In this document: positions 6,869 through 30,419 of the stretch, piece by piece
Layout of the letters: the number at the start of each line of letters is the position of its first letter
How positions within the stretch are numbered: position 1 is the stretch's first letter
From: Rhodanobacteraceae bacterium
GTDB lineage: Bacteria > Pseudomonadota > Gammaproteobacteria > Xanthomonadales > Rhodanobacteraceae
Length of the DNA stretch: 64,000 nt
Reading direction: 5' to 3'
NCBI GenBank assembly: GCA_004299555.1
Contig: SCQU01000021.1
Location: 1 to 64,000 of the forward strand
Program-made: the position numbers and the translations under genes
The notes under the pieces: model-generated
Seen by the model: only the letters and a program-made list of their open reading frames with translations
Database searches by the model: none
Told to the model about the DNA's origin: nothing

Positions 6869-6873
6869 GGGTA

Positions 6874-7830
<957 letters not shown>

Positions 7831-7888
7831 GCCCGTTCTCGATCAGGTCTACCTGAACCGAGTGTACGACGGCGGGCGTCGCGCGGGT

Positions 7889-8961: not shown

Positions 8962-9045
8962 TGCCTGGCAAGCATGATACGGGCCAAGCGGGCGCTGTGC
9001 CTTGCGGTTGACTTTGTGCAGTGCAGAATCTAGCATTCCACGCTT

Positions 9046-9588: not shown

Positions 9589-9750
9589 ATCAGTTGGGGC
9601 GCCAACGCGCCTCACGCGCCGGGACCGGCTGCCGTGCCCGGTGCGCAGTACCAGAATGACGAACGCGCTGCGGCCTGGCCGCGGGCGTTGGTTTGCAAGG
9701 CCGCGGCGGACGCCCGGATTTGCGTTGGAACAACCTTCAGGAGAGCCATC

Positions 9751-9945
9751 ATGGCCGTTGCAAAGAGTCGCAAGTCACCCTCCCGTCGCGGTATGCGCCG
9801 TGCACACGATGCGCTGAAGACGGTCCAGCTTGCCACCGACCCCACTTCCGGCGAGATCCATCAGCGCCACCACATCACCAAGGATGGCTACTACCGTGGC
9901 CGCAAGGTGATCGAGGACAAGCAGGCAGTCGTCGACGAGGATTGA
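9751..9945 (+). CDS. rpmF: 50S ribosomal protein L32
   Basis: A 64-aa ribosomal protein. It starts [20 protein letters not shown], the standard bacterial L32 N-terminus, and ends with the usual [16 protein letters not shown] good Shine-Dalgarno (AGGAGAG) precedes the ATG. The zinc-ligand cysteines found in some L32 proteins are absent, as is usual for gammaproteobacteria. The next gene is fabH; no plsX lies between them. Confidence 0.97.
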
Positions 9946-10039
9946 CCTTGTCGGTGACAATGTGGTCCATTGACGCGCGGCGCTTGCGGGCGCCGCCGTG
10001 GTTTTTTGCATGCGTTGCGCTTGAACGGGGGAATCCATC

Positions 10040-11011: not shown

Positions 11012-11134
11012 TGCCGCTGGCTCCGATCCCGGCCGGCGGGTTCAGGGACCGCAACCGGCCGGACAGCGCGGTTCCGGACCGCGTGCCTGCTGGTTGCTGG
11101 CGGGCGGCGGATCGTAGAGAGGCTTTGGATTTCC

Positions 11135-12103
11135 ATGAATGACAAGACGAACAATCCGGCCACGGCGGCCGACCTGGCTTTCGTGTTTCCAGGCCAGGGT
11201 TCGCAGGCGGTTGGGATGCTGGCGGGGCTTGCGGCCGCGTTCCCGGTGGTGCGCGAGGTGTTCGCCGAGGCGTCGGAAGGCGCGGGGTTTGACCTGTGGG
11301 CGCTCGCGCAGGACGGCCCGGAATCCGAACTTGGCAAAACCGAACACACCCAGCCGGTGCTGCTGGCGGCATGCGTCGCGGTGTGGCGCGTGTGGCTGGC
11401 ACAGGGTGGGCCGCTGCCCGCGCAGGTGGCGGGCCACAGCCTTGGCGAATACTCGGCACTGGTTTGTGCCGGCGCGCTGCCCTTGCGTGCTGCCGCCGCG
11501 CTGGTTGTCGAGCGCGGGCGCCTGATGCAGGCGGCGGTGCCGGCCGGGGTAGGCTCGATGGCCGCGGTGATTGGCGGCGATGAAGACCTCATCCGTGCCG
11601 TGTGCAAGGAAGTATCGGGTGAGGAAGTGGTAGCGCCTGCCAACTACAACAGCCCGGGTCAGCTGGTGATCGCCGGCCACACCGGCGCGGTTGACCGCGC
11701 CGCGCAGCGGCTGACGGAGCTCGGCGTCCGCAAGGTCGTCAAGCTGGCGGTATCGGTGCCGTCGCACACGCCGTTGATGCGTGAAGCGGCCCAGGAGCTT
11801 GCCGCGCGCATGGCGGATTTGCCGTGGCAGGTGCCGGCGATTCCCGTCCTGCAGAATGCCGATGCCAAGGCGCACGTCGGCATCGAGTTCATCCGCGCGG
11901 CGCTCGAGCGCCAGTTGTACATGCCCGTGCTGTGGAGCGACAGCGTGCGTTCGCTGGTGCAGAACGGGGCGACCAAAATATTCGAGTGTGGCCCGGGCAA
12001 GGTATTGACCGGCTTGTGCCGGCGCATCGACAAGTCGATCGATGCGCGCGCGCTCGGGACGCCGGATGAACTGCGTGACGCGCTCGCACAGGTGCGCGCA
12101 TGA
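11135..12103 (+). CDS. fabD: Malonyl-CoA:ACP transacylase
   Basis: Transfers malonyl groups from CoA to ACP; 322 aa. The N-terminal FVFPGQGSQAVGML, the nucleophile motif GHSLGEYSAL, and a catalytic His in VSVPSHTPLM are all present. The C-terminal FECGPGKVLTGLCRRI is typical. The ATG is at 11135, preceded by a weak AGAGAG. The gene overlaps fabG by 4 bp (ATGA). Confidence 0.97.
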   Translation: MNDKTNNPATAADLAFVFPGQGSQAVGMLAGLAAAFPVVREVFAEASEGAGFDLWALAQDGPESELGKTEHTQPVLLAACVAVWRVWLAQGGPLPAQVAGHSLGEYSALVCAGALPLRAAAALVVERGRLMQAAVPAGVGSMAAVIGGDEDLIRAVCKEVSGEEVVAPANYNSPGQLVIAGHTGAVDRAAQRLTELGVRKVVKLAVSVPSHTPLMREAAQELAARMADLPWQVPAIPVLQNADAKAHVGIEFIRAALERQLYMPVLWSDSVRSLVQNGATKIFECGPGKVLTGLCRRIDKSIDARALGTPDELRDALAQVRA

Positions 12104-12843
12104 GCGCCGGCCTGCAAGGCGAAATTGCACTGGTCACCGGTGCTTCGCGCGGGATTGGCGCTGCCATCGCCGACGAGTTGGCGGCCGCCGGCGCCAAGGT
12201 CATCGGCACCGCGACTTCGGCCGCGGGCGCGGCGGCGATTACCGGTCGGTTGGCAGCGCACGGCGGTGAAGGCCAGGTGTTGGATGTCACCGACGGCGCC
12301 GCCGTCACGGCGCTGATCGATGCGATCGTCAAGGATCACGGTGGACTTTCGATCCTGGTCAACAACGCCGGCATCACGCGTGACCAGCTCCTGATGCGGA
12401 TGAAGGACGAGGATTGGCAGGCGATCATCGATACCAACCTGACGTCGGTCTATCGCACGTCCAAGGCGGTGATGCGGACGATGATGAAGGCGCGCAGGGG
12501 CCGCATCGTCAACATCGCCTCGGTGGTCGGCCTGACCGGAAATCCCGGACAGACCAATTACGCGGCGGCCAAGGCCGGCATCATCGCGTTCTCGAAATCA
12601 CTGGCGCGCGAGGTTGGTTCGCGCGGCATTACCGTCAACGTGGTGGCGCCGGGGTTTATTGACACCGACATGACGCGGGGGCTGAACGATGAGCAGCGCA
12701 AGGCTCTGGAAGGCAGCATTGCGCTGGGCCGGCTTGGTGCGCCCGTGGACGTCGCCCACGCGGTGGTGTTTCTGGCCTCGGCCGCGGCCGGTTACATCAC
12801 CGGCGAAACCCTGCACGTGAACGGCGGCATGTACATGGCATGA
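12100..12843 (+). CDS. fabG: 3-oxoacyl-ACP reductase
   Basis: NADPH-dependent ketoreductase of the elongation cycle, 247 aa. It has the cofactor motif TGASRGIGAAIA, the NNAGIT motif, catalytic Ser (IASVVGLTGN) and YxxxK (NYAAAKAGI), and the FabG C-terminus ITGETLHVNGGMYM. Translationally coupled to fabD. It is followed by about 200 bp before acpP that probably contain a separate acpP promoter. Confidence 0.97.
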   Translation: MSAGLQGEIALVTGASRGIGAAIADELAAAGAKVIGTATSAAGAAAITGRLAAHGGEGQVLDVTDGAAVTALIDAIVKDHGGLSILVNNAGITRDQLLMRMKDEDWQAIIDTNLTSVYRTSKAVMRTMMKARRGRIVNIASVVGLTGNPGQTNYAAAKAGIIAFSKSLAREVGSRGITVNVVAPGFIDTDMTRGLNDEQRKALEGSIALGRLGAPVDVAHAVVFLASAAAGYITGETLHVNGGMYMA

Positions 12844-13051
12844 GGCGGCGCCCATGGTTCTATTGCTCCGCGGAACCGGTTACCATTGCGACTTTCGCGC
12901 CGTGGTCGGGGCCCTTTTGGCTGACCATGGAAACACCCGCAGCCTGCGTGGCTGTGCTTGATCATGTACCGTGTGCATCACCAATGTACGCGGGTAGTGG
13001 GGAAGGGTCCGCCCCGACCTCGAATGCATTTGTCCCGGGAGGCACTGTCTC

Positions 13052-13291
13052 ATGAGCAGCATCGAAGAACGCGTCAAGAAGATCGTGGTTGACCAGTTGG
13101 GGGTCAAGGAAGAAGACGTTACGGCGAACGCCTCGTTCGTCGACGATCTGGGCGCGGACTCGCTGGACACCGTGGAGCTGGTGATGGCGCTCGAAGAGGA
13201 GTTTGAAACCGAGATTCCGGATGAGGACGCCGAAAAGATCACCACCGTCCAGCAGGCGGTCGACTACATCAAGGCGCACGTCAAGTCCTGA
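13052..13291 (+). CDS. acpP: Acyl carrier protein
   Basis: A 79-aa acidic carrier protein. The phosphopantetheine attachment Ser37 lies in [10 protein letters not shown]. The start [18 protein letters not shown] is typical. A strong Shine-Dalgarno (GGGAGG) and a long leader suggest high expression. A clear intrinsic hairpin follows at 13346-13374, which would separate this highly expressed gene from fabF. Confidence 0.98.
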
Positions 13292-13345
13292 CTCACGGCC
13301 CCTGGCGGGCCTGCGGGCAGTGGCTTGATGCGTCTGTGGCAACCC

Positions 13346-13385
13346 GAAAGCTGCGCCGTGCGTGCGCAGCTTTCGCTTTGTTGGG
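13346..13385 (+). terminator. Intrinsic terminator after acpP
   Basis: A perfect 11-bp stem GAAAGCTGCGC/GCGCAGCTTTC (13346-13356 and 13364-13374) with a 7-nt loop, followed by a T-rich GCTTTGTT. It lies between acpP and fabF. Confidence 0.75.
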
Positions 13386-13511
13386 CTTCAAACAATGCGG
13401 TGGCGTATGGCGCACCTGGCGCGGTGTTGAGTTCGCCAGGCTGGATGCAATGCAGCACGCGGCTGCCGCGGTGTTGCAATACTGGTTTTCACTTTTGAGC
13501 TTGGAGTCTCC

Positions 13512-14750
13512 ATGAACAAACGGCGTGTGGTGGTGACCGGCCTGGGCCTGGTTTCACCGATTGGCAACGACGTGGCGACGGCGTGGAAGAACGTGGTGGC
13601 TGGCAACAGCGGTATCGGCCCGATCACGCATTTTGACGCCAGCGCGTTCCCCACGCGGATCGCCGGTGAAGTGCGCGGCTTCGACCCGGCGCAGTACATC
13701 GCGCCGAAGGACATCAAGAAGATGGATACCTTCATCCACTACAGCATCGCCGCGGGGACGCAGGCCTTGCGTGACTCGGGGCTTGAAGTGACCGCAGCCA
13801 ATGCGCCGCGGATCGGCGCGGCGGTGGGTGCCGGCATCGGCGGCATTGCCAGTATCGAACGCACCTCGATTGCCTATCACGAGGGCGGCCCGCGCAAGAT
13901 ATCGCCGTTCTTCGTGCCCGGCTCCATCGTCAACATGGTCTCCGGTCACCTGTCGATCATGTATGGCCTGAAGGGGCCGAACATCGCGTGCGTGACCGCC
14001 TGTACCACCGCCACCCACAACATCGGCCTCGCAATGCGGATGATCCAGTACGGTGATGCCGACGCGATGCTCGCCGGGGGCGCCGAGTTTTCGGTTACCG
14101 CAACCGCGGTGGGCGGTTTTTGTTCCGCGCGTGCGATGAGCACCCGCAACGACGATCCGGCGCGTGCCAGCCGGCCGTGGGACAAGGACCGGGACGGCTT
14201 CGTGCTTTCCGATGGCGCGGGCATCGTCGTGCTCGAAGAGTACGAACACGCCAAGGCGCGCGGCGCGAAAATCTACGGCGAGGTGGCAGGCTTCGGCATG
14301 AGTGGCGATGCGTACCACATCACCGCGCCGAGTGAAGGCGGCGAGGGCGCAGCGCGCTGCATGGAGAACGCGCTGCACGACGCCGGCGTCAATCCCGACC
14401 AGGTGCAGTACGTCAACGCCCACGGCACCTCGACGCAGCTGGGGGATCTCGGCGAAGTGCTGGCGGCCAAGCGGGTATTTGGCGACAGTGCGAAAAAACT
14501 TGCGATAAGTTCGACCAAGTCGACGACGGGACACCTGCTGGGCGCCGCCGGTGGCGTCGAGGCCATATTCACCCTGCTGGCGATGCGCGACGGTGTCTTG
14601 CCGCCGACCATCAACCTCGATGCACCCGGGGACGGCTGCGACCTGGACTTCGTGCCCAATACCGCGCGCGACGGCAGGATCGACATCGCGATTTCCAATT
14701 CGTTCGGCTTCGGTGGTACCAACGGCACGCTGCTGTTCAAGCGGGTTTGA
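13512..14750 (+). CDS. fabF: 3-oxoacyl-ACP synthase II
   Basis: Elongating condensing enzyme of fatty-acid synthesis, 412 aa. It begins [18 protein letters not shown]. The Cys-His-His active site is visible: Cys in [13 protein letters not shown], His in [11 protein letters not shown] and His in [13 protein letters not shown]. The end [15 protein letters not shown] is typical. The Shine-Dalgarno is GGAG before ATG 13512. It is followed by pabB after about 16 bp. Confidence 0.98.
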
Positions 14751-21283: not shown

Positions 21284-21328
21284 TGGTCGGGGAGACAGGA
21301 TTTGAACCTGCGACTTCCACGTCCCGAA
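21284..21328 (-). repeat. att repeat: duplicated 3' part of tRNA-Pro (distal end of element)
   Basis: These 45 bp are identical to 30343-30387, the 3' part of tRNA-Pro(CGG) from the anticodon to the CCA end. The tRNA 5' half is missing here, so this is a pseudo-tRNA fragment made by site-specific integration. It defines the left boundary of a 9,059-bp element. Confidence 0.95.
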
Positions 21329-21426
21329 TAAAATTTCGGCCTGTTTCCAGTCAAGGGCTTACACGATAAGTGCTTGATTGTGCGTGCCGTTGCGTGCCAT
21401 TCCGTTTCGGTCTATTCTCCGTCCTG

Positions 21427-21480
21427 CACTTACCAGTCACTTACCGGCTGGTAACTACGGTCTCGCGACGGATCACTTAC
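21427..21480 (+). repeat. CACTTAC iterons at left end of element (candidate integrase arm sites)
   Basis: CACTTAC occurs at 21427-21433, 21438-21444 and 21474-21480, plus an inverted CACTTAT copy at 21366-21372. The first pair is spaced 11 bp. The right end carries the same pair at 30260-30277. Arm-type integrase binding is inferred. Confidence 0.5.
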
Positions 21481-21482
21481 GG

Positions 21483-22712
21483 ATGCAGGCGAAGCTCACC
21501 AAGGCGGCGCTGACGCGGTTCAAGCCGGATGCGCGACCTTACGAGGTCAGCGACACGGAACTGACCGGCCTGATCCTGCGTGTGCAGCCATCCGGCCACA
21601 AGAGCTTCATCATGCAGTTCGGCCGCGGTCGCCGGCGCACCATCGGGAACGCGGCGGTGCTGACGATCGAACAGGCGCGTGTGACGGCCCGCCGCTGGCT
21701 GGCCGAACGCGACGAGGGCAGGCTCCCGCCCGCCGCGCGCGGCCCCAGCAAGCCGGTCACGCTCGGGACTTTCATCGAAAAGGAATACGCGCCCTGGTGT
21801 GTCGCCAACCGCAAGGCGGGCGCCGCGTTGGTGTCGGCGCTGCCTGCGCTGTTCGGCGATTGGTACGACGACCGGCTGACCGCGATCACCGCGTGGAAGG
21901 TCGAAAAGCTCCGCGTCGCCAGACTCAAGACCGGCATCAAGCCCGCAACGGCGAACCGCGACATTGACCGCATCAAGGCGATCCTGTCGAAGGCGGTCGA
22001 ATGGGGCCGGCTGGAATCGCACCCGCTGCGCACCGTGAAGCGCCACAAGATCGACAACAGTCGTGTCCGGTACTTGGATGCCGACGAGGAACGCCGATTG
22101 CGTGACGCGCTGGACGCGCGTGAGAAGGCCGCCCGGCAACGCCGACACAACGGCAACGTGTGGATGCTCGCGCGCCATCGTGAGCCGCGCGTGGAGCTGG
22201 GTGCCTACTGCGATCACCTGCAACCTATGGTGCTCCTGGCGCTCAATACCGGCCTGCGCCGGGGCGAGCTATTCGGGCTGGAGTGGCGCGACGTGGATCT
22301 GGTGCACGATGACCTGACCGTGCGGGCCGCGAATGCGAAATCGGCAAGGACGCGACACGTCCCGCTGAATGCCGAGGCGCACGCCGTGCTGGAGCTCTGG
22401 AAGGGTCAAGGCGAAGGGACCGGGCTGGTATTTCCGGGCGTCGGTGGCGCGCGCATGACGAACATCAACAAAGCCTGGGCGGGGCTGTGCACCGATGCAA
22501 AGCTCGAGGGATTCCACTTCCACGATTGCCGGCATCACTTCGCATCGAAGCTGGTCATGGGCGGTGTCGATCTCAACACCGTGCGCGAATTGCTCGGGCA
22601 TGCCGACATCGCAATGACACTGCGTTACGCGCACTTGGCGCCCGCGCACAAGGCGCGCGCGGTCGACGTGTTGAATCCACCAGGCAAACGAATTGGCCGA
22701 AGGGCCAAGTAA
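21483..22712 (+). CDS. Tyrosine-type integrase of the tRNA-Pro element
   Basis: A 409-aa site-specific recombinase. The N-terminal part resembles the arm-binding DUF4102 domain (LTKAALTRFKPDARPYEVSDTELTGLILRVQPSG). A core-binding helical domain follows (residues about 95-180). The catalytic domain carries Arg in LNTGLRRGELFGLEWRDVD, the HxxR-type box HDCRHHFASKLVMGG, a GHADIAMTLRYAHLAP segment with the penultimate His, and the Tyr nucleophile in RYAH. Start ATG 21483 (MQAKLTK) is chosen because the in-frame sequence before it is not protein-like. It is adjacent to the att repeat and should catalyse integration at tRNA-Pro. Confidence 0.95.
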   Translation: MQAKLTKAALTRFKPDARPYEVSDTELTGLILRVQPSGHKSFIMQFGRGRRRTIGNAAVLTIEQARVTARRWLAERDEGRLPPAARGPSKPVTLGTFIEKEYAPWCVANRKAGAALVSALPALFGDWYDDRLTAITAWKVEKLRVARLKTGIKPATANRDIDRIKAILSKAVEWGRLESHPLRTVKRHKIDNSRVRYLDADEERRLRDALDAREKAARQRRHNGNVWMLARHREPRVELGAYCDHLQPMVLLALNTGLRRGELFGLEWRDVDLVHDDLTVRAANAKSARTRHVPLNAEAHAVLELWKGQGEGTGLVFPGVGGARMTNINKAWAGLCTDAKLEGFHFHDCRHHFASKLVMGGVDLNTVRELLGHADIAMTLRYAHLAPAHKARAVDVLNPPGKRIGRRAK

Positions 22713-22777
22713 GCGGCCCGTCGGCGTGATAGCGCACGCCGGCAGGCCTTCCACAACCGACCGTAGGAGGTCGAATC

Positions 22778-23038
22778 ATGGCAACCGAAAGTGTAGCAAC
22801 CCAAAGCAAGTTTGCTCCGTTCTTCCTTCCCTTTGATTGCGTAAATCGCGCTGGGCTACTGGGGGCGCGAGCGCAAGCGCTTGCCAATGTCATCGGATTT
22901 TCGTCAAGCACCGTAGGCGACGGAATTGGCAGAAACGATATTGTGGAACTGTGCTACCTGCTGGCGGAAATGGTGCAGGAGTTGCAATCCATTGCCGAAA
23001 CCCGCAGGCCGATGCCAGCACAGGAAGCGCAAGCATGA
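22778..23038 (+). CDS. Small element protein, unknown function
   Basis: An 86-aa protein not recognised. AGG-AGG Shine-Dalgarno (TAGGAGG) 7 nt before ATG 22778 supports expression. The C-terminal half is an acidic helix (VELCYLLAEMVQELQSIAE). It overlaps the next small gene by 4 bp (ATGA). Confidence 0.7.
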   Translation: MATESVATQSKFAPFFLPFDCVNRAGLLGARAQALANVIGFSSSTVGDGIGRNDIVELCYLLAEMVQELQSIAETRRPMPAQEAQA

Positions 23039-23271
23039 ACGCCAAGACGAATGTTTCGCAGACCAACTACAGCTACACCGAAACAGACCCGTTCGAACGC
23101 GCGACCGCCCGGCTTGACGGGATCAAAGCCATACAGGTGCTTGCGGACTGTGCGATGGAATCCACGGAGCAACCCACGCCGCGCGTGTGGAGCAGTCTCT
23201 GGTTTTTCGTTGCAACAGTCGCGGAAGACATCGAGCGCGACATACACGAAATGCGCCAATCGCAGGCCTGA
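23035..23271 (+). CDS. Small element protein, unknown function
   Basis: A 78-aa protein not recognised, with central helix RATARLDGIKAIQVLADCAMES and a Trp-rich stretch VWSSLWFFVATVAEDIERDI. It resembles in layout the upstream 86-aa protein (two acidic helices). The ATGA overlap shows translational coupling. Perhaps a short regulatory or accessory protein; no assignment is justified. Confidence 0.65.
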   Translation: MNAKTNVSQTNYSYTETDPFERATARLDGIKAIQVLADCAMESTEQPTPRVWSSLWFFVATVAEDIERDIHEMRQSQA

Positions 23272-23360
23272 CGAACACGCCACGGCTAGGCCGGCCAGCC
23301 GAACGCGCGGACTCTCACCGCGTTGCCGTGGCGATCTTTTGAGAGCGTGAGAGAGCACGC

Positions 23361-23837
23361 ATGACCTACCATTTGGACACGAGCACTCCGGCGCTTGTCG
23401 TGAATCTTCGGCGACAGCTATCGCGGGGCTACGGCGCCGCAATAGCGAAACACGTCAAATCGATTGCGCAGGGATGCGATGATGTTGAACGGCTGCGCGC
23501 GCTGGTGGGGCTACTGGCAGACCACATCACGGATCCGCCCAGGCGCAAGCGTGGAGCGCCGCGCAAGAAAAGCAGCCCTGTGCGGACGCGGGAGGTTGAC
23601 GGGAAGATCACGGCCACCATCGACTTGGATGCAATCATTCCGAAAACAAAGGCCGAACAGCGGCAGGAGCTTCATCGGCTCGTGTTGCGATTGCGGGTGC
23701 TAGATGAAGTCGAGCGCGTTCTGAAACGGAAGGATGTGAGCCTGACCGGTGCGTTCATGGAAGCGGCGCGCGCACTCAACATCACCGAAGCGCAGGCACG
23801 GAAAGCGTACTACGGCCACGATTCACGACAATCCTGA
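23361..23837 (+). CDS. Element protein, unknown function (basic linker)
   Basis: A 158-aa protein not recognised. Helical N-terminal region, a basic linker (PPRRKRGAPRKKSSP, about residues 60-74), and a C-terminal helix-turn-helix-like end (LKRKDVSLTGAFMEAARALNITEAQARKAYYG). The end looks like a resolvase- or phage-type DNA-binding helix pair. A DNA-binding role is inferred only. Confidence 0.6.
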   Translation: MTYHLDTSTPALVVNLRRQLSRGYGAAIAKHVKSIAQGCDDVERLRALVGLLADHITDPPRRKRGAPRKKSSPVRTREVDGKITATIDLDAIIPKTKAEQRQELHRLVLRLRVLDEVERVLKRKDVSLTGAFMEAARALNITEAQARKAYYGHDSRQS

Positions 23838-23883
23838 TTTGCCGGGAATGCCTCGCCGGTATTTATAACTATCGTTTCTCGGT

Positions 23884-23905
23884 GTGTGGTCGCGTTTGAT
23901 CACAC
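23884..23905. promoter_or_regulatory. Imperfect 22-bp palindrome upstream of AlpA-like gene
   Basis: GTGTGGTC-GCGTTT-GATCACAC, 7 of 8 half-site positions paired, lies 18 bp before the start at 23923. A possible promoter (TTGCCG at 23839, TATAAC at 23864) is just upstream. Candidate operator, autoregulatory or prophage-repressor controlled; inferred. Confidence 0.4.
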
Positions 23906-23922
23906 GTAGCCGGAGAAACGAA

Positions 23923-24132
23923 GTGTCGAAGCAGATTCCGACGAAGCTCATCTACACCGTCGCCGAGGCGCAAGCGGCGACCGGGTTCCCGCATTCTCGC
24001 CTATACGAGCTGATCCGTGACGGCGCGCTCGTGACGTTCAAGGTTGGCCGGCGCCGGATGATTTCGGCCCGCGCGGTCAATGACCTGATCACCCGCCTGG
24101 AGCGCGCGGCTACGCCAAAGGACGCGGCATGA
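23923..24132 (+). CDS. AlpA/excisionase-family helix-turn-helix protein
   Basis: A 69-aa winged-helix DNA-binding protein. IYTVAEAQAATGFPHSRLYELIRDGALVTFKVGRRRMISARAVNDLI is the MerR-like/excisionase fold (helix_turn_helix_17 type). In satellites and integrative elements such AlpA-type proteins activate excision or replication. GTG start at 23923 with GGAG 8 nt upstream; the ORF could be read from an earlier GTG at 23884 but that falls inside the palindrome. It overlaps the following gene by 4 bp. Confidence 0.85.
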   Translation: MSKQIPTKLIYTVAEAQAATGFPHSRLYELIRDGALVTFKVGRRRMISARAVNDLITRLERAATPKDAA

Positions 24133-24323
24133 GCGCGCCGCTCCTGCAACCGCAACGGCGCAGTCGTGCGGAAACCCTGATTGACGTGCGGGCCGCCTGC
24201 GCCCGCATGGGCGCGCTCGGCAGCGAATCGCAACCGGATTGCAGCGAGATTGCCAGGACTGCTGAAGGGCTACGCCGTCTGCTTGCCGAACCCATCGCGG
24301 ATGAGCGGGAGGTTTCGCAATGA
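24129..24323 (+). CDS. Small element protein, unknown function
   Basis: A 64-aa protein, overlapping its neighbours on both sides by ATGA. It is helical and rich in Ala and Arg (IDVRAACARMGALGSES). Not recognised. The double coupling suggests it belongs to the alpA-primase-repA translational unit. Confidence 0.55.
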   Translation: MSAPLLQPQRRSRAETLIDVRAACARMGALGSESQPDCSEIARTAEGLRRLLAEPIADEREVSQ

Positions 24324-24826
24324 CCAGTCCGGAAAAACGAACCCCGGCTGGCGGGCCGGGGCGAGTTGGAAAAGCATCTTGTGGTTGGGAAGTGTACCAG
24401 AGTTCGCCAGTTGATCGACTGCTGTCGCGGCTGGAAGGCGTGAAGCAAACCGGACCGGGCCGCTGGCTTGCTCGTTGTCCCGCCCACCAAGATTGCAGCC
24501 CGAGCCTATCAATCAAGCAGTGCGACGGTGGCGTGATCTTGTTGCACGACTTCGCCGGCTGCGGTGCGGCGGACATCCTGGCGGCGGTTGGGCTGGAGTT
24601 GCGCGACCTGTTCCCGCGCGACTACGGCCGGCACGGATCGGGGCCGCGGCCGGATTGGCAGCGTGACCGGATCCAGGCTGCACTGGATCACGAAGATCTG
24701 ATCCTGGAAATTGCGCGGGCCGATCTTGCCAAGGGCAAGACTCTATCCGCCGACGATCGTTCACGCGCGTTGCAGGCGCGGGATCGGGCACGCGTGCTGC
24801 GGAGGAAACTCCATGCACGACACTGA
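24320..24826 (+). CDS. CHC2-type zinc-finger primase-like protein
   Basis: A 168-aa protein. VDRLLSRLEGVKQTGPGRWLARCPAHQDCSPSLSI followed by VILLHDFAGCGAADILAAVGL is the CHC2 zinc-binding module found at the N-terminus of DNA primases. The TOPRIM catalytic domain of full-length primases is not present, so it is either a stand-alone template-binding part or a truncated primase. It probably works with the adjacent RepA-like ATPase in element replication. Overlaps the next gene start at 24813. Confidence 0.8.
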   Translation: MTSPEKRTPAGGPGRVGKASCGWEVYQSSPVDRLLSRLEGVKQTGPGRWLARCPAHQDCSPSLSIKQCDGGVILLHDFAGCGAADILAAVGLELRDLFPRDYGRHGSGPRPDWQRDRIQAALDHEDLILEIARADLAKGKTLSADDRSRALQARDRARVLRRKLHARH

Positions 24827-26195
24827 CGAAATACTCGCGGAAGTCGACCGGGAGATCGAGACCACTGGCGTTGCGCCACCAGACGCGAACGCACTGGTGC
24901 CGGTGGACCTGCACGGCGTGATGACGAACGCGGAACCGCCCGTGCGCTATGTGTTCGACCCAATCATTCCCCGCGGCGAGGTGACGCTGCTGAGCGGCCA
25001 TGGCGGCGCGGGCAAAAGCATCCTGGCACTTACCTTGGCTGCGCATGCCGCGTGTGGGCGCCGGTGGGGGCCGTTCGAGGCCGTCCAGGCCAGCGCGGTG
25101 TATGTCAGCCTGGAAGACCCGGCGCGCCGTGTGCGCAGCCGCCTGCGCCGCATCATCGAGAGTTGCGACCTGTCGGCTGACGACGTGATTGCCGGGCTTC
25201 GTGTGTTCGACGGCAGCGCGGCAGATGGCGTGCTGGCGTTCGAGCAAATGGACAACGGCGTGCGGCGGCTGCTGCCGAGTACCGGCATGGGCCGCGTGGC
25301 CGCGGTGGCACAACACGCCGACCTGATCGTGATCGACAACGCCAGTGATGCCTACGGCGGCAACGAAAACGAGCGGCGGCAGGTGCGGGCGTTCATCCGC
25401 ATGCTGGCGGCACTCGCACGCGAGAACGATGCCGGGCTGCTGCTGGCCGCGCATATCGACAAGGCGAGCGCCAAGTACGGCGGCGCCGGCAACAACTACT
25501 CGGGTTCAACCGCCTGGCACAACTCGGTGAGGTCGCGGCTGGCGCTGGTGTCCGATGAATCCGGGATGCTGCTGGCCATCGAGAAAGTGCAGGACACCAT
25601 GCTGCCCGAGCCGGTGCGCGTGGCCTTCAATGATTGGGGGGTGCTGGTGCCGCAGTCGGGGCGCGCCAGCCAAGCCGTTGCGGACACCCTGGCGCACGAT
25701 GATGCCAGCGCGGTGTTGGTGGTTATCCGCCTCGCCCTGGCGGACGGGCAAACCGTATCGGCAGCCAAGAGCGGCAGTGCCACCGCCTGGCACACGTTGT
25801 GCGAATACCCAGAACTGGCAGGCGAGTACAAGACCGCAGCCGGCAGGAAGCGCGTCAATGCCGCGTTGCTGCGGCTGATGCGTGACGGCGCGATCGTCAA
25901 GACCGAGTATCGCAACGACAACCGCAAGCTGAAAACACGCTACGAACTGGCGCAATTTGGGCAGACCGGAATTACTGAACGCACCAGTACAGGTGCGCCG
26001 CTCCAGTCCCCCATACCCCCCAGCGCACTGGCGCACGCGCCTGACGGCGCGCGCCAATGCTCCACCACTACGCCGGAACAGGACTGGCGCACTACTGGCG
26101 CACTGGCGCACAACGATGACTGGTTGGCGAATGCCGACCCCGAGGTCAAAGCAACGTTGGGCGCCTTCAGGGCCAAGGCGGAGGGTGAGCCATGA
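24813..26195 (+). CDS. RepA-like RecA-fold ATPase (helicase)
   Basis: A 460-aa P-loop ATPase of the RepA/AAA_25 type. Walker A HGGAGKSILALTLAAHAA at about residues 67-84, VYVSLEDPARRVRSRLRR, Walker B DLIVIDNASDAYGG, and LLLAAHIDKASAKYGGAGNNYSGSTAWHNSVRSRL. These resemble the hexameric replicative helicases of RSF1010-type plasmids and satellites. The C-terminal 150 residues have a winged-helix-like section (ALLRLMRDGAIVKTEYRN). Shine-Dalgarno GGAGG before ATG 24813. Together with the CHC2 protein it forms a likely replication module. Confidence 0.87.
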   Translation: MHDTDEILAEVDREIETTGVAPPDANALVPVDLHGVMTNAEPPVRYVFDPIIPRGEVTLLSGHGGAGKSILALTLAAHAACGRRWGPFEAVQASAVYVSLEDPARRVRSRLRRIIESCDLSADDVIAGLRVFDGSAADGVLAFEQMDNGVRRLLPSTGMGRVAAVAQHADLIVIDNASDAYGGNENERRQVRAFIRMLAALARENDAGLLLAAHIDKASAKYGGAGNNYSGSTAWHNSVRSRLALVSDESGMLLAIEKVQDTMLPEPVRVAFNDWGVLVPQSGRASQAVADTLAHDDASAVLVVIRLALADGQTVSAAKSGSATAWHTLCEYPELAGEYKTAAGRKRVNAALLRLMRDGAIVKTEYRNDNRKLKTRYELAQFGQTGITERTSTGAPLQSPIPPSALAHAPDGARQCSTTTPEQDWRTTGALAHNDDWLANADPEVKATLGAFRAKAEGEP

Positions 26196-26506
26196 TCGCG
26201 GCTTCCCCTCGCGCGCGTGAATACGACGCGCTGCACGCCCAACTTGCCCACGCGGTGGCCGGCATGAGGGGCTACGAGGAGCGCAAGGCGAAGGAACGGA
26301 TGGCCCTTGGGTCACATGACCCAAGGGTTGATGCAGGTCGTGTCTCCGAGGTTCTCGCCAAAAAGGTTGGTGTGGGTGAAAAGACCGTGCGCCGTGCCAT
26401 CAAGCAAGGCATACCCCATGATCACGATCACGCTCTCCCGAACCCTGCGCGGAAACCTGCGCGCGCTGGTGCGCGCTGGCTATCGGGGGACCGTCTTGGC
26501 GCTTGA
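26192..26506 (+). CDS. Small element protein with possible HTH
   Basis: A 104-aa ORF coupled to the RepA-like gene by an ATGA overlap. Residues about 52-73 (VSEVLAKKVGVGEKTVRRAIKQ) look like a helix-turn-helix. The last 30 residues overlap the next ORF in another frame and are low in complexity, so the real gene may end earlier, or a frameshift may join it to 26418-26741. Function unknown. Confidence 0.5.
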   Translation: MIAASPRAREYDALHAQLAHAVAGMRGYEERKAKERMALGSHDPRVDAGRVSEVLAKKVGVGEKTVRRAIKQGIPHDHDHALPNPARKPARAGARWLSGDRLGA

Positions 26507-26741
26507 CCGCGAGGCGCACCTTGTCGCCGTTCTTGATGTGCAGGCCGAGCGCGAACGTTACCTGGCGATCATCCGCGCCGATGCGATGCCGGCGGAAGCA
26601 TCGGGTCTGCTGACACTGCCGGGCCTGCAATTCGGCGAGGGCCGTCCGGATCCGGAACGCGCGCTCCGTGCCGCGATCGACGCCGCGCGCGACGCCGGAA
26701 TGGAAATCGACCTTGCGGCCGCCATGGTGACGCTCCAATGA
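26418..26741 (+). CDS. Element protein, unknown function
   Basis: A 107-aa protein, MITITLSRTLRGNLRALVRAGY at the start, then a beta-strand-rich stretch (GTVLALDREAHLVAVLDVQAE) and a C-terminal helix. Not recognised. The ATG is inside the 3' end of the preceding ORF in a different frame; no clear Shine-Dalgarno. Followed by the promoter of the capsid gene. Confidence 0.5.
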   Translation: MITITLSRTLRGNLRALVRAGYRGTVLALDREAHLVAVLDVQAERERYLAIIRADAMPAEASGLLTLPGLQFGEGRPDPERALRAAIDAARDAGMEIDLAAAMVTLQ

Positions 26742-26754
26742 CCATCATCGGGCC

Positions 26755-26793
26755 TTGTATGAATCCGATCGCTTCGATAGAATTCGTCTATCG
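26755..26793 (+). promoter_or_regulatory. Capsid-gene promoter with overlapping operator
   Basis: TTGTAT (26755-26760), 17-bp spacer, TAGAAT (26778-26783): a good sigma-70 match. A perfect inverted repeat CGATAGA-ATTCG-TCTATCG (26775-26793) overlaps the -10 element, the classical position of a repressor site. It starts the late module (capsid onward). Sequence is seen; control is inferred. Confidence 0.6.
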
Positions 26794-26936
26794 CCAACGA
26801 ACTGCGCCACGCGCAATTCGCAGAGCGATCAAGTTTGCGGCAAGCCCACGGCGAAGCGCGCGACAAGTCTGGTTTTTCTAACCGGCCTTGCGTGCGCTTT
26901 TTTCATGCGCGCGGGCCACAAACTTGAGGAACAAAC

Positions 26937-28322
26937 ATGAAATTCAGAGAAGCGCTTCGAGCTGTCGCACCCGAGGCAGCGAAAGCAGGATTCCAGTTGG
27001 AATGCCACCGCGCTGACGCATCGAAATCCGAACTGTTGAAAGATCGCGCGAACTTGCGGCGATTGATCAACACCATGCAGGCGCAGGAGGATGAGTCACT
27101 TGATGCCGCGACCATCGAACGCCACAACAAAGTGGCCGATGCGGTTGTCCCGCTGATAAGCGAAATCAATGTGAGGCTCGATTGGCTGGATTCGGACGAT
27201 GCGCCTGGTGCGAACGGTGCTAGCGGAACATGGGGCGGCCGCGCGGTCAAAGACACCTCCGGCCGGCGAATCGGCACGATGCTGGATGCAGCGGCGCTGC
27301 GCGACAGTCGCCAGATCGATGCAGCCTTGCGCGTGGGCAGTCGGGCAATCTCGGGCGCGGGCGATGATCCGATGGTCGCCGCTGGTGACCAGGGCGACCT
27401 CGCGACATTCTTCCGCGGGGTTTCCGGCGGCAGCACGACGCCTACAATCCGGGCAGCTCTGAACGAGGGAACGGACAGCACCGGCGGCTACGCGGTCCCG
27501 AGCTGGGTGCTGGCGCCGATCATCAAGGCGCTTGTGCCCGCATCGACGATGCTCGCCGCAGGCGCAAACATGACGGTGCTGGACCAGCCCGGCGATTCGT
27601 TCGTGATCCCTGCAGTGGACACGATTCCGACGCCCTCCTGGCGTCTCGAACTTGGGACGGTGAACAATGCCGGCCCGACGTTCCGCGCCGTCACGATCGT
27701 TCCGCGAAGCCTGGCCTTCATTTTCCAGGTCTCGCGCGAATTGCTGATGGACGCGCCCGGTATGAATGACGCGCTGAGTCTCGTCATCAGTCAGGCATTC
27801 GCGAAAGAAATCGACCGCGCCGGCCTGATGGGTTCCGGTGCCACGCCGGAAATCACCGGCATCTTGAACAATGCCGGCGTGCAGACCTACAACATGGGCA
27901 CGAACGGCGCAGCGTTGGCCTTCTACACGGACATCGTGAAGGCCAGGCGTGTACTGACCGGCGTCAATGCACCAGCGCCGACCGCGATCATTACAAGCAA
28001 CCGTGAAGCGCAAACCATCGATCTGTTCGCCGACACGCTGGGTCAACCGCTGCGCCGACCACAAGCACTCGCGGATATGCAATTCCTCTCGACAACGCAG
28101 ATCCCGATCACTGGCACGCAAGGGACCGCAACGGATGCGGCGAACATGTTTATGGGTGACTTCACGCAGGCAACGTTCTACCTGCGCGAGCACCTCAGCG
28201 TCATGAAGCTCGATCAGCTCTACGCAGAAAGCGGGGCGATAGGCTTTCTCTGCCATGCACGCGTCGACTTGGCGCTGCGCTACCCGCAAGCGTTCTGCGC
28301 GATCAAGGGAGTGATCCCGTAA
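26937..28322 (+). CDS. HK97-fold phage major capsid protein
   Basis: A 461-aa capsid protein. The first about 110 residues are charged and helical, resembling the delta/scaffold domain. The HK97 core follows: LNEGTDSTGGYAVPSWVLAPII near residues 175-196, FQVSRELLMDAPGMNDALSLVI, KEIDRAGLMGSGATPEITGILN and a C-terminal strand-rich region VMKLDQLYAESGAIGFLCHARVDLALRYPQAFCAIKGV. It has its own promoter 150 bp upstream. There is no adjacent portal or protease gene, unlike in phages, so its scaffold could not be processed by a cis-encoded protease. It may co-assemble with or replace a helper phage capsid. Confidence 0.93.
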   Translation: MKFREALRAVAPEAAKAGFQLECHRADASKSELLKDRANLRRLINTMQAQEDESLDAATIERHNKVADAVVPLISEINVRLDWLDSDDAPGANGASGTWGGRAVKDTSGRRIGTMLDAAALRDSRQIDAALRVGSRAISGAGDDPMVAAGDQGDLATFFRGVSGGSTTPTIRAALNEGTDSTGGYAVPSWVLAPIIKALVPASTMLAAGANMTVLDQPGDSFVIPAVDTIPTPSWRLELGTVNNAGPTFRAVTIVPRSLAFIFQVSRELLMDAPGMNDALSLVISQAFAKEIDRAGLMGSGATPEITGILNNAGVQTYNMGTNGAALAFYTDIVKARRVLTGVNAPAPTAIITSNREAQTIDLFADTLGQPLRRPQALADMQFLSTTQIPITGTQGTATDAANMFMGDFTQATFYLREHLSVMKLDQLYAESGAIGFLCHARVDLALRYPQAFCAIKGVIP

Positions 28323-28581
28323 CCGTAATCGCTCCCTGCAGGAGTGATCGGACCAGCCGGCGGTGTCCGAAACAACACCGGCAGTTGCGGCACCGTGTTC
28401 CGGTTCCTTCGGGTTGAGCGGTGTGACGCGACGACGATGCCGGGCGGCACCCAGCCGCCCGGCTCGCCTCTCAACAAGCCACGATCGCACCGGGTAGGGG
28501 GAGTGTAAATCGCTGGCCGGGCGTGTCTTCTAGACCGGCTGCCCAGTCAAATTTTCGCATCCGCAAAATGGAGAATCAGCC
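28323..28581 (+). other. Non-coding gap between capsid and terS
   Basis: 259 bp without a convincing gene. It holds a perfect 10-bp hairpin at 28439-28463 (GCCGGGCGGC, loop ACCCA, GCCGCCCGGC) without a T run. In tailed phages and their satellites genes for portal, protease or head connectors would sit around here; none is present. Confidence 0.6.
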
Positions 28582-28989
28582 ATGGCACGACCACGCAAGC
28601 CGACTGCCTTACACGCGATCACTGGCGCGCTGGAGCACGACCGGGCGCGTTTCGCCGACCGCGCGAACGAACCGCACGATGAGCGGCCATTGGGACCGCC
28701 ACCGGACACACTCGAAGCGCCCATCCGCGCCGCCTGGCTGGAAATCGAGCGGCTGGCGCCTTGGCTTGTGTTCGCCGATCGCTTGGCAGTCGAGATTGCG
28801 GCCCGCCTGCTGGTGTTCGTTCGCATCGCGGGCGTGGCCATGGCAACACCTGCGCAGCTGTCGCGGTTGCAAGCTGCGCTCGGCGCGCTCGGCCTGACGC
28901 CCGCGGATCGTGCCAAGGTCAGCATGCCGGCACGAAAGCCCAACAACCCGTTCAAACAGTTCGGCAAGCGCATGGGAGAAACGGCATGA
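28582..28989 (+). CDS. Phage terminase small subunit, P27 family
   Basis: A 135-aa protein. RPRKPTALHAITGALEHDR at the N-terminus, a central helical part (AAWLEIERLAPWLVFADRLAVEIAARLL), and the end ALGALGLTPADRAKVSM are typical of P27-family small terminases, which recognise packaging sites. Good Shine-Dalgarno (GGAGAA). No large terminase is encoded in the element, so it would have to recruit one from a helper phage. Overlaps the next gene by 4 bp. Confidence 0.85.
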   Translation: MARPRKPTALHAITGALEHDRARFADRANEPHDERPLGPPPDTLEAPIRAAWLEIERLAPWLVFADRLAVEIAARLLVFVRIAGVAMATPAQLSRLQAALGALGLTPADRAKVSMPARKPNNPFKQFGKRMGETA

Positions 28990-29561
28990 GCAATGAAGCA
29001 GGTGAATCGATCGACACCAGCCTGACGGTCATGGATGAGCGCACCTTCCCGGTTGTTGCCAGCCCGCATCCGCTGCGCAGCGACAAGGTTGTCGCGTACA
29101 TACGCGAGGGTCAGACCCTACGAGAGGTTATTGGCGACCATGCGGCCTATTCGCTGAAGGTCGAAGTTGGCGGCATCGAAGTGCCCGAACATATGTGGAA
29201 CAAGGTGCGTCCGCGCGCTGGCGTTCCGGTTCACGTGCAGGTCTACCCGCAGGGCGGTAATGGCGGGAAGCTGTTGCGCAGCGTGTTGCTTATCGTGGTC
29301 GCGATCGTGGCATGGTATGCCGCGCCATATCTCACAGGGGAATTCGGGTTGCTCGCTGGCGCGAACACAGCGGTGGTTACCGCCGGTCTTGCAATCGTTG
29401 GGCAACTCGCGATCAGTGCGCTAATCCCGCCACCTACGCCCAAGGGTCTCAACGGCGCATCCGGCGATCCATTCAAGCAGCTTGAATCGCTAACCGGCAC
29501 CAGCAACCAAGCCAACCCGTACGGCGTGATCCCGTGTGTCGTCGGCAAGATGCGGTTTTAG
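28986..29561 (+). CDS. Truncated J-like tail-tip protein, N-terminal part
   Basis: A 191-aa protein resembling only the first about 190 residues of long phage tail-tip (host-specificity J-type) proteins. It has a MoaD/ubiquitin-like start (SPHPLRSDKVVAYIREGQTLREVI), then VPEHMWNKVRPRAGVPVHVQVYPQGG. Two hydrophobic segments follow (about residues 95-112 and 125-145). The conserved LTGTSNQANPYGVIPCVVGK closes it. It then stops at TAG 29559-29561, where full-length relatives continue for several hundred residues. No frameshifted continuation is visible downstream, so this is a clean truncation. Coupled to terS. Confidence 0.75.
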   Translation: MSNEAGESIDTSLTVMDERTFPVVASPHPLRSDKVVAYIREGQTLREVIGDHAAYSLKVEVGGIEVPEHMWNKVRPRAGVPVHVQVYPQGGNGGKLLRSVLLIVVAIVAWYAAPYLTGEFGLLAGANTAVVTAGLAIVGQLAISALIPPPTPKGLNGASGDPFKQLESLTGTSNQANPYGVIPCVVGKMRF

Positions 29562-29564
29562 ACA

Positions 29565-30245
29565 GTGACCGTGATAACTCCGCTTCCGATGATGAAGCCT
29601 GGCGAGGCTCGCATGGTCGACGGCCGGAAGTTTTATCGCGTTGTCACGCCGGCGGGACAGGTTCCGCGTGATGCTGCCGTCCATGAAGCGGGGCACACGA
29701 TCGGAGCTTGGTGGACCGGCAAGGGCATCACGCAAGTCGTGTTGTGCCCAGCCGGCGAGTCTGGATTGAGCTTCACCGAATGTGAGCGCTCCTACATCGA
29801 AGGCTCTGACGCGCAGAGCGTCGCGGCATTCTGCAAAAAACTTGCCCGAAAGGAACTCAATGAGCGCGTGACGCGCGAGCTCGTGCAGTGCATGGCCGGA
29901 CCGATGGCCGAGGCCAAGCTGAAGGGCTACGGGTTCGCGTGGCAGGCGATGGCAATGGATCCGGGTTATCGAGAGTGGCGCGAAGGTGATCCGCCCAGCG
30001 ACCTGCACGCATGGACAGCGACATCACACCTGCCGAAGCCGAAGGATCGCGCGCGCGTCGCGAACGCATCGATTGGCGTTTGCGCCAACATGCTCGCGTT
30101 CTATTGGGAGCATGTGGAAACGCTCGCCGCAGCCCTGCAGCAACGCCACACGCTGAGCGGCGCCGACGTGCTCGCGGTGATCGGAGAGGCTCCCCGGGAG
30201 CCGCTGTGCAAGCTCACGATGGGCGGTGCGATGCTGACGCTGTGA
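29565..30245 (+). CDS. HExxH metallopeptidase-like protein of the element
   Basis: A 226-aa protein. The motif AAVHEAGHTIGAWWTGKG, about residues 38-55, is a zincin HExxH signature like that of M41/FtsH peptidases. A later GPMAEAKLKGYGFAWQAM segment matches the M41-type helix that follows the metal site. No AAA+ domain or membrane segment is present, so it is a stand-alone domain. GTG start at 29565, 3 bp after the previous stop. A role as scaffold or prohead protease is conceivable but unsupported; host-factor cleavage is another option. Confidence 0.6.
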   Translation: MTVITPLPMMKPGEARMVDGRKFYRVVTPAGQVPRDAAVHEAGHTIGAWWTGKGITQVVLCPAGESGLSFTECERSYIEGSDAQSVAAFCKKLARKELNERVTRELVQCMAGPMAEAKLKGYGFAWQAMAMDPGYREWREGDPPSDLHAWTATSHLPKPKDRARVANASIGVCANMLAFYWEHVETLAAALQQRHTLSGADVLAVIGEAPREPLCKLTMGGAMLTL

Positions 30246-30259
30246 ATCAAGCCGTTTCG

Positions 30260-30277
30260 CACTTACCCTGCACTTAT
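30260..30277 (+). repeat. CACTTAC/CACTTAT pair at right end of element
   Basis: Copies at 30260-30266 and 30271-30277 spaced 11 bp, the same spacing as the left-end pair at 21427/21438. Candidate integrase arm sites; inferred. Confidence 0.45.
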
Positions 30278-30292
30278 TGAGCGAATACGAAA

Positions 30293-30313
30293 ACGGCCGC
30301 GATTGGCGGCCGT
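30293..30313 (-). terminator. Intrinsic terminator of tRNA-Pro (minus strand)
   Basis: A perfect 8-bp stem ACGGCCGC/GCGGCCGT with a 5-nt loop. On the minus strand it is followed by TTTT. It lies 30 bp downstream of tRNA-Pro, within the element DNA, so the element may supply the terminator. Confidence 0.65.
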
Positions 30314-30342
30314 CTGAAAATGCTTGATTCCATGCGAATTAT

Positions 30343-30419
30343 TGGTCGGGGAGACAGGATTTGAACCTGCGACTTCCACGTCCCGAACGTGGCGCTCTAC
30401 CAGACTGAGCTACACCCCG
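30343..30419 (-). tRNA. tRNA-Pro (CGG)
   Basis: A 77-nt tRNA with genomically encoded CCA. The anticodon loop TTCGGGA sits in stem CCACG/CGTGG, giving anticodon CGG (Pro). The T arm reads GCAGG-TTCAAAT-CCTGT. In the acceptor stem position 6 is U and 67 is U, a mismatch, and the duplicated copy at 21284-21328 has the same base. It is the integration target of the element; its 3' 45 bp form the right att repeat. Confidence 0.95.

What the first reader, a model, noticed from the sequence alone, without database searches (positions are those of the whole stretch)
21284..30387. tRNA-Pro element that encodes a major capsid protein and small terminase but no portal, large terminase or tail
A 9-kb element with clear att repeats, integrase, AlpA, CHC2 zinc-finger protein and RepA-like helicase, then a capsid gene with its own promoter and a P27 small terminase. 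This is the layout of a phage satellite that would redirect a helper's packaging and supply its own shell. The capsid without protease or portal differs from known capsid-forming islands, which usually carry a full head set. It could be a new minimal type, or a decayed prophage; compactness, ATGA overlaps and intact integrase argue for selection.
Basis: partly seen in the sequence, partly recalled or inferred. Interest (0 to 1): 0.85.

Follow-up and report, generated by a model that had tools for sequence, protein, structure and literature searches.

The report
Phage satellite with lone capsid gene
This 9-kb insert in a tRNA gene looks like a phage satellite, a parasite of bacterial viruses, that brings its own shell protein and DNA-packaging selector but must take the rest of its particle from a helper virus; it is a variant of a known type rather than a dead virus.

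Summary
The island is real: 9,104 bp between perfect 45-bp repeats at tRNA-Pro, with intact int, AlpA, CHC2 primase-type protein, AAA helicase, HK97-fold capsid protein (MCP) and P27-type TerS. Portal and TerL are absent. It is not a decayed prophage: an IMG/VR contig keeps the same mcp-terS-J-peptidase block at another tRNA (76-89% identity; dN/dS 0.13-0.20 outside the MCP N-terminal domain), and 12 of 15 congeners show the empty site. Its MCP lies in a 44-member clade (support 100/100) from Beta/Gammaproteobacteria; among 17 att-bounded members (7.8-10.3 kb) none has a portal or a full TerL. Lone MCP genes are already known in Gram-negative PICIs, so this is a PICI-type satellite, not a new class. 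New here: 16 of 44 clade MCPs carry a delta (scaffold) domain like that of Burkholderia phage Bcep176-type MCPs, mostly 21-28 residues shorter, on a core hardly similar to Bcep176's, and two elements sit inside terL of Bcep176-like prophages. The window's own helper is unknown. Packaging is inferred, not shown.

The parts
21284..21328 (.). left attachment repeat, 45 bp
   Evidence: identical to 30343-30387
21483..22712 (+). tyrosine integrase (ATG start; upstream TTG starts possible)
   Evidence: PF00589 3.7e-30; phrog_1 4e-61
22778..23038 (+). orf86, unknown
   Evidence: ORF; no Pfam hit
23035..23271 (+). orf78, unknown, start uncertain
   Evidence: ORF; no Pfam hit
23279..23346 (+). int-alpA RNA (RF02996), between int and alpA
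   Evidence: 44.8 bits, gathering 35.8
23361..23837 (+). orf158, unknown
   Evidence: ORF; no significant family
23923..24132 (+). AlpA-like excisionase/regulator
   Evidence: HTH_17 4.7e-8; phrog_66 weak, 0.0057
24129..24323 (+). orf64, unknown, ATGA-coupled
   Evidence: ORF; no Pfam hit
24320..24826 (+). CHC2 zinc-finger primase-type protein
   Evidence: phrog_6088 DNA primase 4.5e-12; Pfam below cut-off
24813..26195 (+). RepA-like AAA ATPase/helicase
   Evidence: AAA_25 2.5e-33
26192..26506 (+). orf104, unknown
   Evidence: ORF; weak HTH_36 0.015
26418..26741 (+). orf107, unknown
   Evidence: 77% identical over residues 69-107 in L020
26742..26936 (+). conserved structured leader of the capsid gene
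   Evidence: about 95% identical to L020 (alignment); fold z = -4.5 for 26790-26936
26937..28322 (+). HK97-fold major capsid protein; delta domain about residues 1-150, core about 151-461
   Evidence: PF05065 8.1e-31; AlphaFold2 mean pLDDT 81; Foldseek matches to D3 and HK97 capsids about 5e-14
28582..28989 (+). P27-type small terminase
   Evidence: phrog_83 1.4e-12; 83% in L020
28986..29561 (+). N-terminal fragment (191 aa) of tail-tip protein J
   Evidence: phrog_31 1.7e-14; 84% in L020, which ends at the same codon
29589..30245 (+). putative zinc metallopeptidase (HEAGH), function unknown
   Evidence: 89% in L020; PF13398 0.0046, below cut-off
30343..30387 (.). right attachment repeat inside tRNA-Pro
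30343..30419 (-). tRNA-Pro(cgg), target site

Best explanation
A Gram-negative PICI-type phage satellite. Shown: an integrated, intact element at tRNA-Pro with integration, AlpA and replication genes, a selected MCP, TerS and J fragment, and no portal or TerL. Inferred: after helper infection it excises and replicates; its TerS directs the helper's large terminase to satellite DNA; its MCP enters head assembly on the helper's portal, using the helper's protease and connectors, to make satellite-sized heads (mixed with helper MCP as for Ccm, or mainly its own); helper tails are attached. The delta (scaffold) domain is inferred to be the adapter to the helper's assembly pathway while the shell core stays the satellite's own. 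The J fragment most likely acts on helper tail-tip assembly (interference or redirection); this is the least certain step.
For: Insertion and intact genes. Same mcp-terS-J-peptidase block at tRNA-Ser in L020; dN/dS: MCP core 0.20, terS 0.18, J 0.13, peptidase-like 0.19. MCP clade of 44 with support 100/100, none labelled with a portal; 0 of 17 att-bounded clade members has a portal or full TerL by profile search, size 9,216 +/- 711 bp. TerS in at least 7 of 17 and one tail-protein piece in at least 6 of 17. Two clade members lie inside terL of Bcep176-like prophages. Delta domains of 16 of 44 match Bcep176 or the L078 prophage MCP at E<1e-3, cores 2 of 44; 0 in 100 shuffle rounds; 0 of 37 other phage delta domains. 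Of 54 satellite-type deltas the best match to the L078 prophage's delta is that of the satellite embedded in it. Between shared motifs 55-61 residues in eight satellites and 68 in L027 against 82-83 in the two phages.
Against: No excision, packaging or particle data. No HK97-type helper prophage found in this genome. The window's own delta domain has no phage match, so the delta argument does not apply directly to the window; 28 of 44 clade deltas do not match Bcep176 or the L078 prophage. In 35 satellite-bearing genomes or records only L078's holds a Bcep176-type MCP at 70% identity or more (76%). Relatives were found through the MCP, so its constancy among them is by construction. In EcCICFT073 packaged DNA was phage-sized (PMC6092414, passages), and PICI capsid genes are said not to be required for transfer (PMC10111431). 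One clade member, L026, has an ORF with a weak N-terminal match to a terminase-large family (5.5e-6 over 84 residues).
Confidence: 0.67

Rival explanations
1. Satellite whose MCP is not needed for transfer: DNA travels as concatemers in full-size helper heads, and the MCP and J fragment mainly hamper the helper or are captured late genes.
For: EcCICFT073 DNA was phage-sized and deleting its capsid or decoration gene did not lift the interference (PMC6092414, passages); PICI capsid genes said not required for transfer, and late-gene capture described (PMC10111431, passages).
Against: MCP core under purifying selection; a 44-member clade of such MCPs; bounded elements have a narrow size range, although this does not exclude concatemers. 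That every relative has the MCP is by construction of the search and counts for nothing.
Confidence: 0.23
2. Decayed prophage that kept a few genes by chance.
For: Single late genes and a truncated J look like remnants at first sight; a broken second MCP copy exists in one relative (L027).
Against: L020 keeps the same block and the same J stop codon at dN/dS 0.13-0.20; 17 bounded clade members share the layout without portal or full TerL; one clade, not scattered losses.
Confidence: 0.04
3. cfPICI that has lost its other head genes only here.
For: An element with portal, TerL and MCP occupies tRNA-Pro in a related genome, L029.
Against: L029's MCP is only 28% identical and lies outside the clade; the 17 bounded clade members lack portal and full TerL.
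Confidence: 0.03
4. Island kept mainly as host anti-phage defence, using virion-part decoys.
For: Tail-assembly interference is known in PICIs and prophages (abstracts of PMC11364771 and PMC10884400); late zones of relatives hold CBASS-like genes.
Against: Intact integrase, AlpA and replication genes, and a different tRNA site in L020, point to continuing mobility.
Confidence: 0.03

Closest known systems
Gram-negative PICIs (EcCICFT073, PmCI172; PMC6092414)
   Same: int, AlpA, replication module, late genes with a lone MCP and sometimes TerS; PmCI172 has an MCP homologue and makes small heads
   Different: slightly smaller (9.1 kb); MCP only distantly like those in 50,697 phage records (114 match, all under 60%; in the 60 listed, 22-28% over half or more of the MCP, 32% over 30% in one); J N-terminal fragment; helper not known
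SaPIbov5 Ccm (PMC8569155, PMC5052747)
   Same: lone HK97-fold capsid homologue with a delta domain in a satellite; Ccm's delta is given as 44 residues shorter than the helper's, and shorter deltas are also seen in clade relatives here
   Different: Firmicute cos-type SaPI; for this window neither small capsids nor co-assembly has been shown; no helper MCP known to compare with
cfPICIs
   Same: satellites carrying capsid genes (family recalled; the defining paper was not held)
   Different: no portal, TerL or full head set here
HE-PICIs (PMC10111431)
   Same: two clade relatives, L077 and L078, sit in terL of a prophage, a kind of site reported there (A:Terminase_1)
   Different: the window element is in tRNA-Pro; no integrase comparison with HE-PICIs was made
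CpmB/Rcm scaffold mimics (PMC12409344, passages)
   Same: idea that a satellite switch resembles the helper's scaffold
   Different: here the scaffold-like part is the delta domain of a satellite MCP

Membership tests
Gram-negative PICI | integrase and AlpA at one end | tested here: met
Gram-negative PICI | replication module (primase/rep) | tested here: met
   phrog_6088 4.5e-12 and AAA_25 2.5e-33; separate genes
Gram-negative PICI | co-directed genes, specific att site, no full virion gene set | tested here: met
Gram-negative PICI | genome 10-20 kb | tested here: inconclusive
   9,104 bp, just below the range given in PMC10111431
Gram-negative PICI | helper-induced excision and packaging | not testable with these tools
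   needs culture
cfPICI | own complete head set (portal, TerL, protease, connectors) | tested here: not met
   portal and TerL; connectors not searched for one by one; definition recalled, paper not held
Ccm-type capsid size switch | HK97-fold MCP homologue with delta domain, no other head-shell genes | tested here: met
Ccm-type capsid size switch | incorporated in small helper capsids | not testable with these tools
   needs particles
HE-PICI | integrated in a prophage late gene | tested here: not met
   window is in tRNA-Pro; met by relatives L077 and L078
PICMI | no genes for capsid remodelling | tested here: not met
   MCP present; definition from the abstract start in listings
P4-like satellite | sid, psu, delta, alpha genes (recalled) | not tested
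   no specific search made; none appeared
decayed prophage | broken genes, relatives with the full set | tested here: not met

The most novel reading that the evidence does not exclude
An old, dedicated lineage of satellite capsid proteins that keeps its own shell core and pairs it with a shortened copy of the helper's delta (scaffold) domain, exchanged when the helper changes, so that the helper's portal and protease build satellite-sized heads; single truncated tail proteins (J or tape-measure N-termini) are carried as matching tail-stage controls.
Probability: 0.3. Interest if true: 0.78.

Novelty: new variant of a known kind. Interest (0 to 1): 0.6.

Why it matters
Why many Gram-negative satellites keep one capsid gene without the rest of a head set is unresolved (PmCI172 suggests size redirection, EcCICFT073 looks dispensable). 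This clade gives a testable answer: the delta domain as adapter to a nameable helper type (Bcep176-like), with two satellites physically inside such prophages.

Tried and rejected
Decayed prophage and cfPICI-loss readings were rejected. The first genome-contig scan with the window MCP alone found no relative; an alignment query found 38 loci. Search for the window's helper by its delta domain failed: no match in 50,697 phage records; in 233 family genomes only the window at high score plus four weak hits, E 5e-4 to 0.006, of which one is the L021 satellite; not pursued. The MCP leader was not found whole elsewhere in 230 family genomes, only three short matches. The J-fragment model was too poor to use (mean pLDDT 44.7). 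No promoter consensus upstream of the MCP. Literature searches for int-alpA and Proteo-phage-1 RNA gave nothing usable. The delta-length comparison cannot say whether satellites lost or phages gained the segment. My terL profile did not detect the short 5' terL pieces of L077 and L078, and blastp to three reference TerLs gave no hit at all; L077's pieces were identified by tblastn instead, L078's 5' piece by eye from its likeness to L077's.

Limits of counts. Gene calls in relatives are rough. The joint family scans of late-zone ORFs covered 71 of 85 called: comparators L029 and L056 and one MCP piece were left out, one window ORF was replaced by terS and two window starts were changed. Not all 71 were then looked at one by one; one of three phrog_641 TerS matches was not traced, so TerS and tail counts are minima. 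82 of 92 MCP records were long enough for the tree. Portal absence outside the 17 bounded clade members rests on contigs that are partly truncated. Of 25 bounded elements 14 have att repeats of 30 bp or more, the rest 15-20 bp. The label 'no portal' for L078 was set by me because the portal there belongs to the surrounding prophage. On rechecking, the point that the MCP is constant among relatives was struck as evidence, because the relatives were found through it; the best explanation was lowered from 0.70 to 0.67 and the first rival raised from 0.20 to 0.23.
Full report
Observation. The island spans 21284-30387 (9,104 bp) between two identical 45-bp repeats, the right copy lying in the 3' part of tRNA-Pro(cgg). 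The main genes all point the same way: int, three small ORFs, AlpA-like HTH, CHC2 primase-type protein, AAA_25 helicase, HK97 capsid protein, P27-type TerS. ATGA overlaps are real. In phage SOVA965 the matching J stretch is residues about 24-175 of an 838-residue tip protein, so the satellite carries only its N-terminal part.

Insertion. In 12 of 15 congeners pilZ, an intact tRNA-Pro and the right flank lie together without an island; for the other 3 only the left flank was seen. The window's genome has one PF05065 match, this MCP, no PF04860 portal or PF03354 TerL match and no Bcep176-type MCP, so no HK97-type helper prophage is evident in the assembly. The host family is inferred to be Rhodanobacteraceae because same-family genome G097 has a contig of the same length as a Frateuria terrea record; the family name itself is recalled.

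Not a remnant. IMG/VR contig L020 (4,086 bp) holds mcp, terS, the J fragment and the peptidase-like gene in the same order at 76, 83, 84 and 89% identity and ends at tRNA-Ser(cga), a different site. The J fragment ends at the same codon. Nei-Gojobori dN/dS is 0.18 for terS, 0.13 for J, 0.19 for the peptidase-like gene, 0.20 for the MCP core and 0.39 for the whole MCP. The MCP's N-terminal 150 residues differ: 50% identity against 89% for the core, dN/dS 0.58, pS 0.49 against 0.24, which suggests a separate history, although poor alignment there may inflate the values. The non-coding 195 bp before the MCP are about 95% identical and most of them fold far better than shuffles (z -4.5).

Relatives. 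Of 50,697 phage records 114 match the MCP, all under 60% identity; the 60 listed show 22-28% over half or more of the MCP, and 32% over 30% of it in Burkholderia phage BgVeeders33 (54 were not listed). An alignment-based search found 38 loci in genome contigs and 54 in viral contigs; 15 of 233 same-family genomes, the window's included, match. Of 61 loci scanned, 24 different ones have tRNA-overlapping direct repeats that enclose the MCP; with the window that makes 25. In a tree of 82 MCP cores, 44 rows form a clade with support 100/100 that holds the window and L020 and members from the window's family, Lysobacteraceae, Comamonadaceae, Burkholderiaceae, Sphaerotilaceae, Oxalobacteraceae and Nitrosomonadaceae; none is labelled as having a portal in the DNA held (the L078 label was set by hand). 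Near outgroups L056 and L080 do have one. Seventeen clade members are att-bounded: 7,788-10,281 bp, mean 9,216, SD 711. By iterative profile search portals lie inside 2 of all 25 bounded elements (L029, L056) and TerL inside 1 (L029), none of them in the clade; the whole-genome Pfam searches show no match inside any of the 17. One qualification: a 234-aa ORF in L026 matches the first 66 positions of a 218-position family labelled terminase large subunit (phrog_13702, 5.5e-6).

Late zone. The MCP is present in all by construction, since it was the query. TerS was found in at least 7 of the 17 (window, L022, L023, L026; L032, L038; L050), and outside the clade in L058 and L059. A single tail-protein family was found in at least 6: J fragments in the window, L026 and L046 (353 aa, followed by a further tail gene); tape measure in L022 and L030 and a 161-aa N-terminal tape-measure fragment in L053. 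L060 has a ClpP/SDH-type serine protease of uncertain role. One S78 head protease was seen among 71 late-zone ORFs; it lies in L059, outside the clade.

Helper link. Two clade members, L077 and L078, interrupt terL of a prophage: TerS and a 5' terL piece lie before the satellite integrase, the rest of terL after its last genes. L077's two pieces are 91% and 95% identical to neighbouring stretches, 18 bp apart, of TerL of Burkholderia phage Bcep176, and the L078 prophage's own MCP is 76% identical to Bcep176's. Comparing MCP halves, the delta domain of 16 of 44 clade members matches Bcep176 or the L078 prophage at E<1e-3 (best 2e-15), the core only in 2 of 44 (23-26% identity); composition shuffles gave 0 in 100 rounds, and 0 of 37 other phage delta domains matched. 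One clade delta, L053's, matched another phage's (L087, 5.6e-4). The satellite cores do match other phage-type MCP cores, best L066 at up to 43% (a contig end whose portal status is unknown) and L087 at 33%. Against the prophage's delta the best of 54 satellite-type queries was the satellite embedded in that prophage. Between shared motifs the delta is 82-83 residues in the two phages, 55-61 in eight satellites and 68 in L027; a pattern hit in L052 (26) stopped early and is not counted, and six of the 16 gave no pattern hit, though the alignment shows the same gap (L050 with a small insertion nearby). In SaPIbov5 the Ccm delta is 44 residues shorter than the helper's and delta length has been linked to head size (PMC5052747, passages). 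The window's own delta has no phage match; its TerS and J fragment both find phages RHph_Y3_1 and SOVA965 (30-37% identity), a weak hint at helper type. Only 1 of 35 satellite-bearing genomes or records has a Bcep176-type MCP at 70% or more, so resident helpers of this type are not the rule.

Mechanism. Shown: an intact, selected, inserted element that lacks portal and TerL. Inferred: packaging of its DNA by helper TerL guided by its TerS; entry of its MCP into helper-nucleated heads, with the delta domain as adapter; helper tails. The J fragment may disturb or redirect tail-tip assembly; tail-assembly interference exists in PICIs and prophages (abstracts of PMC11364771 and PMC10884400; passages of the latter), but no homology to those proteins was tested. 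The AlphaFold2 model of the MCP has the HK97 fold with long N-terminal helices (mean pLDDT 81; the best PDB matches are D3 and HK97 capsids).

Known or new. Gram-negative PICIs often carry an MCP (21 of 29 reference PICIs, PMC10111431, passage); PmCI172 makes small heads and has an MCP homologue, EcCICFT073's DNA is phage-sized (PMC6092414, passages). So the window element is a PICI-type satellite. One search on satellites and delta domains listed three papers; I read passages of PMC5052747 and PMC6893505 and parts of PMC8569155 and saw no statement of a delta domain shared between a satellite MCP and a helper MCP. The cfPICI paper and the 2023 satellite survey were not held, and the library lacks most subscription papers, so this is weak evidence of novelty.

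Noticed in passing
window 26742-26936: Non-coding leader of the MCP gene, more conserved than the coding sequence (about 95% to L020) and strongly folded; possible attenuator or regulatory RNA.
   Followed up: partly
window 23279-23346; L022, L025, L032: int-alpA RNA (RF02996) in the window and in 3 of 7 related loci scanned.
   Followed up: partly
L026 10202-10283; window 28317-28386: Proteo-phage-1 RNA directly after the MCP gene in L026 (52.6 bits) and below threshold at the same place in the window (23 bits, E 0.99).
   Followed up: no
L077 about 4200-13900; L078 about 4080-13800: Lone-MCP satellites integrated inside terL of Bcep176-like prophages.
   Followed up: yes
window 29589-30245: Putative zinc metallopeptidase with HEAGH motif, 89% conserved in L020; role unknown.
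   Followed up: no
late-zone ORFs of the bounded elements (alignment A2): PADLOC matches to a CBASS-type cyclase, a 2TM effector and a type IV restriction enzyme among 71 ORFs; which elements hold them was not traced.
   Followed up: no
L025 13987-14180: C4 antisense RNA with its targets and isrK, an immunity-type RNA module.
   Followed up: no
L027 5757-5977: Pieces of a second, broken MCP copy beside an intact one.
   Followed up: no
L029 4140-13999: Element with portal, TerL and a distant MCP at tRNA-Pro in a related genome.
   Followed up: partly
L026 11017-11718: 234-aa ORF with a weak N-terminal match to a family labelled terminase large subunit (phrog_13702, 5.5e-6).
   Followed up: no
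window 22711-22784 (-): PtaRNA1-like antisense RNA, 35.5 bits, below the gathering score of 47.
   Followed up: no
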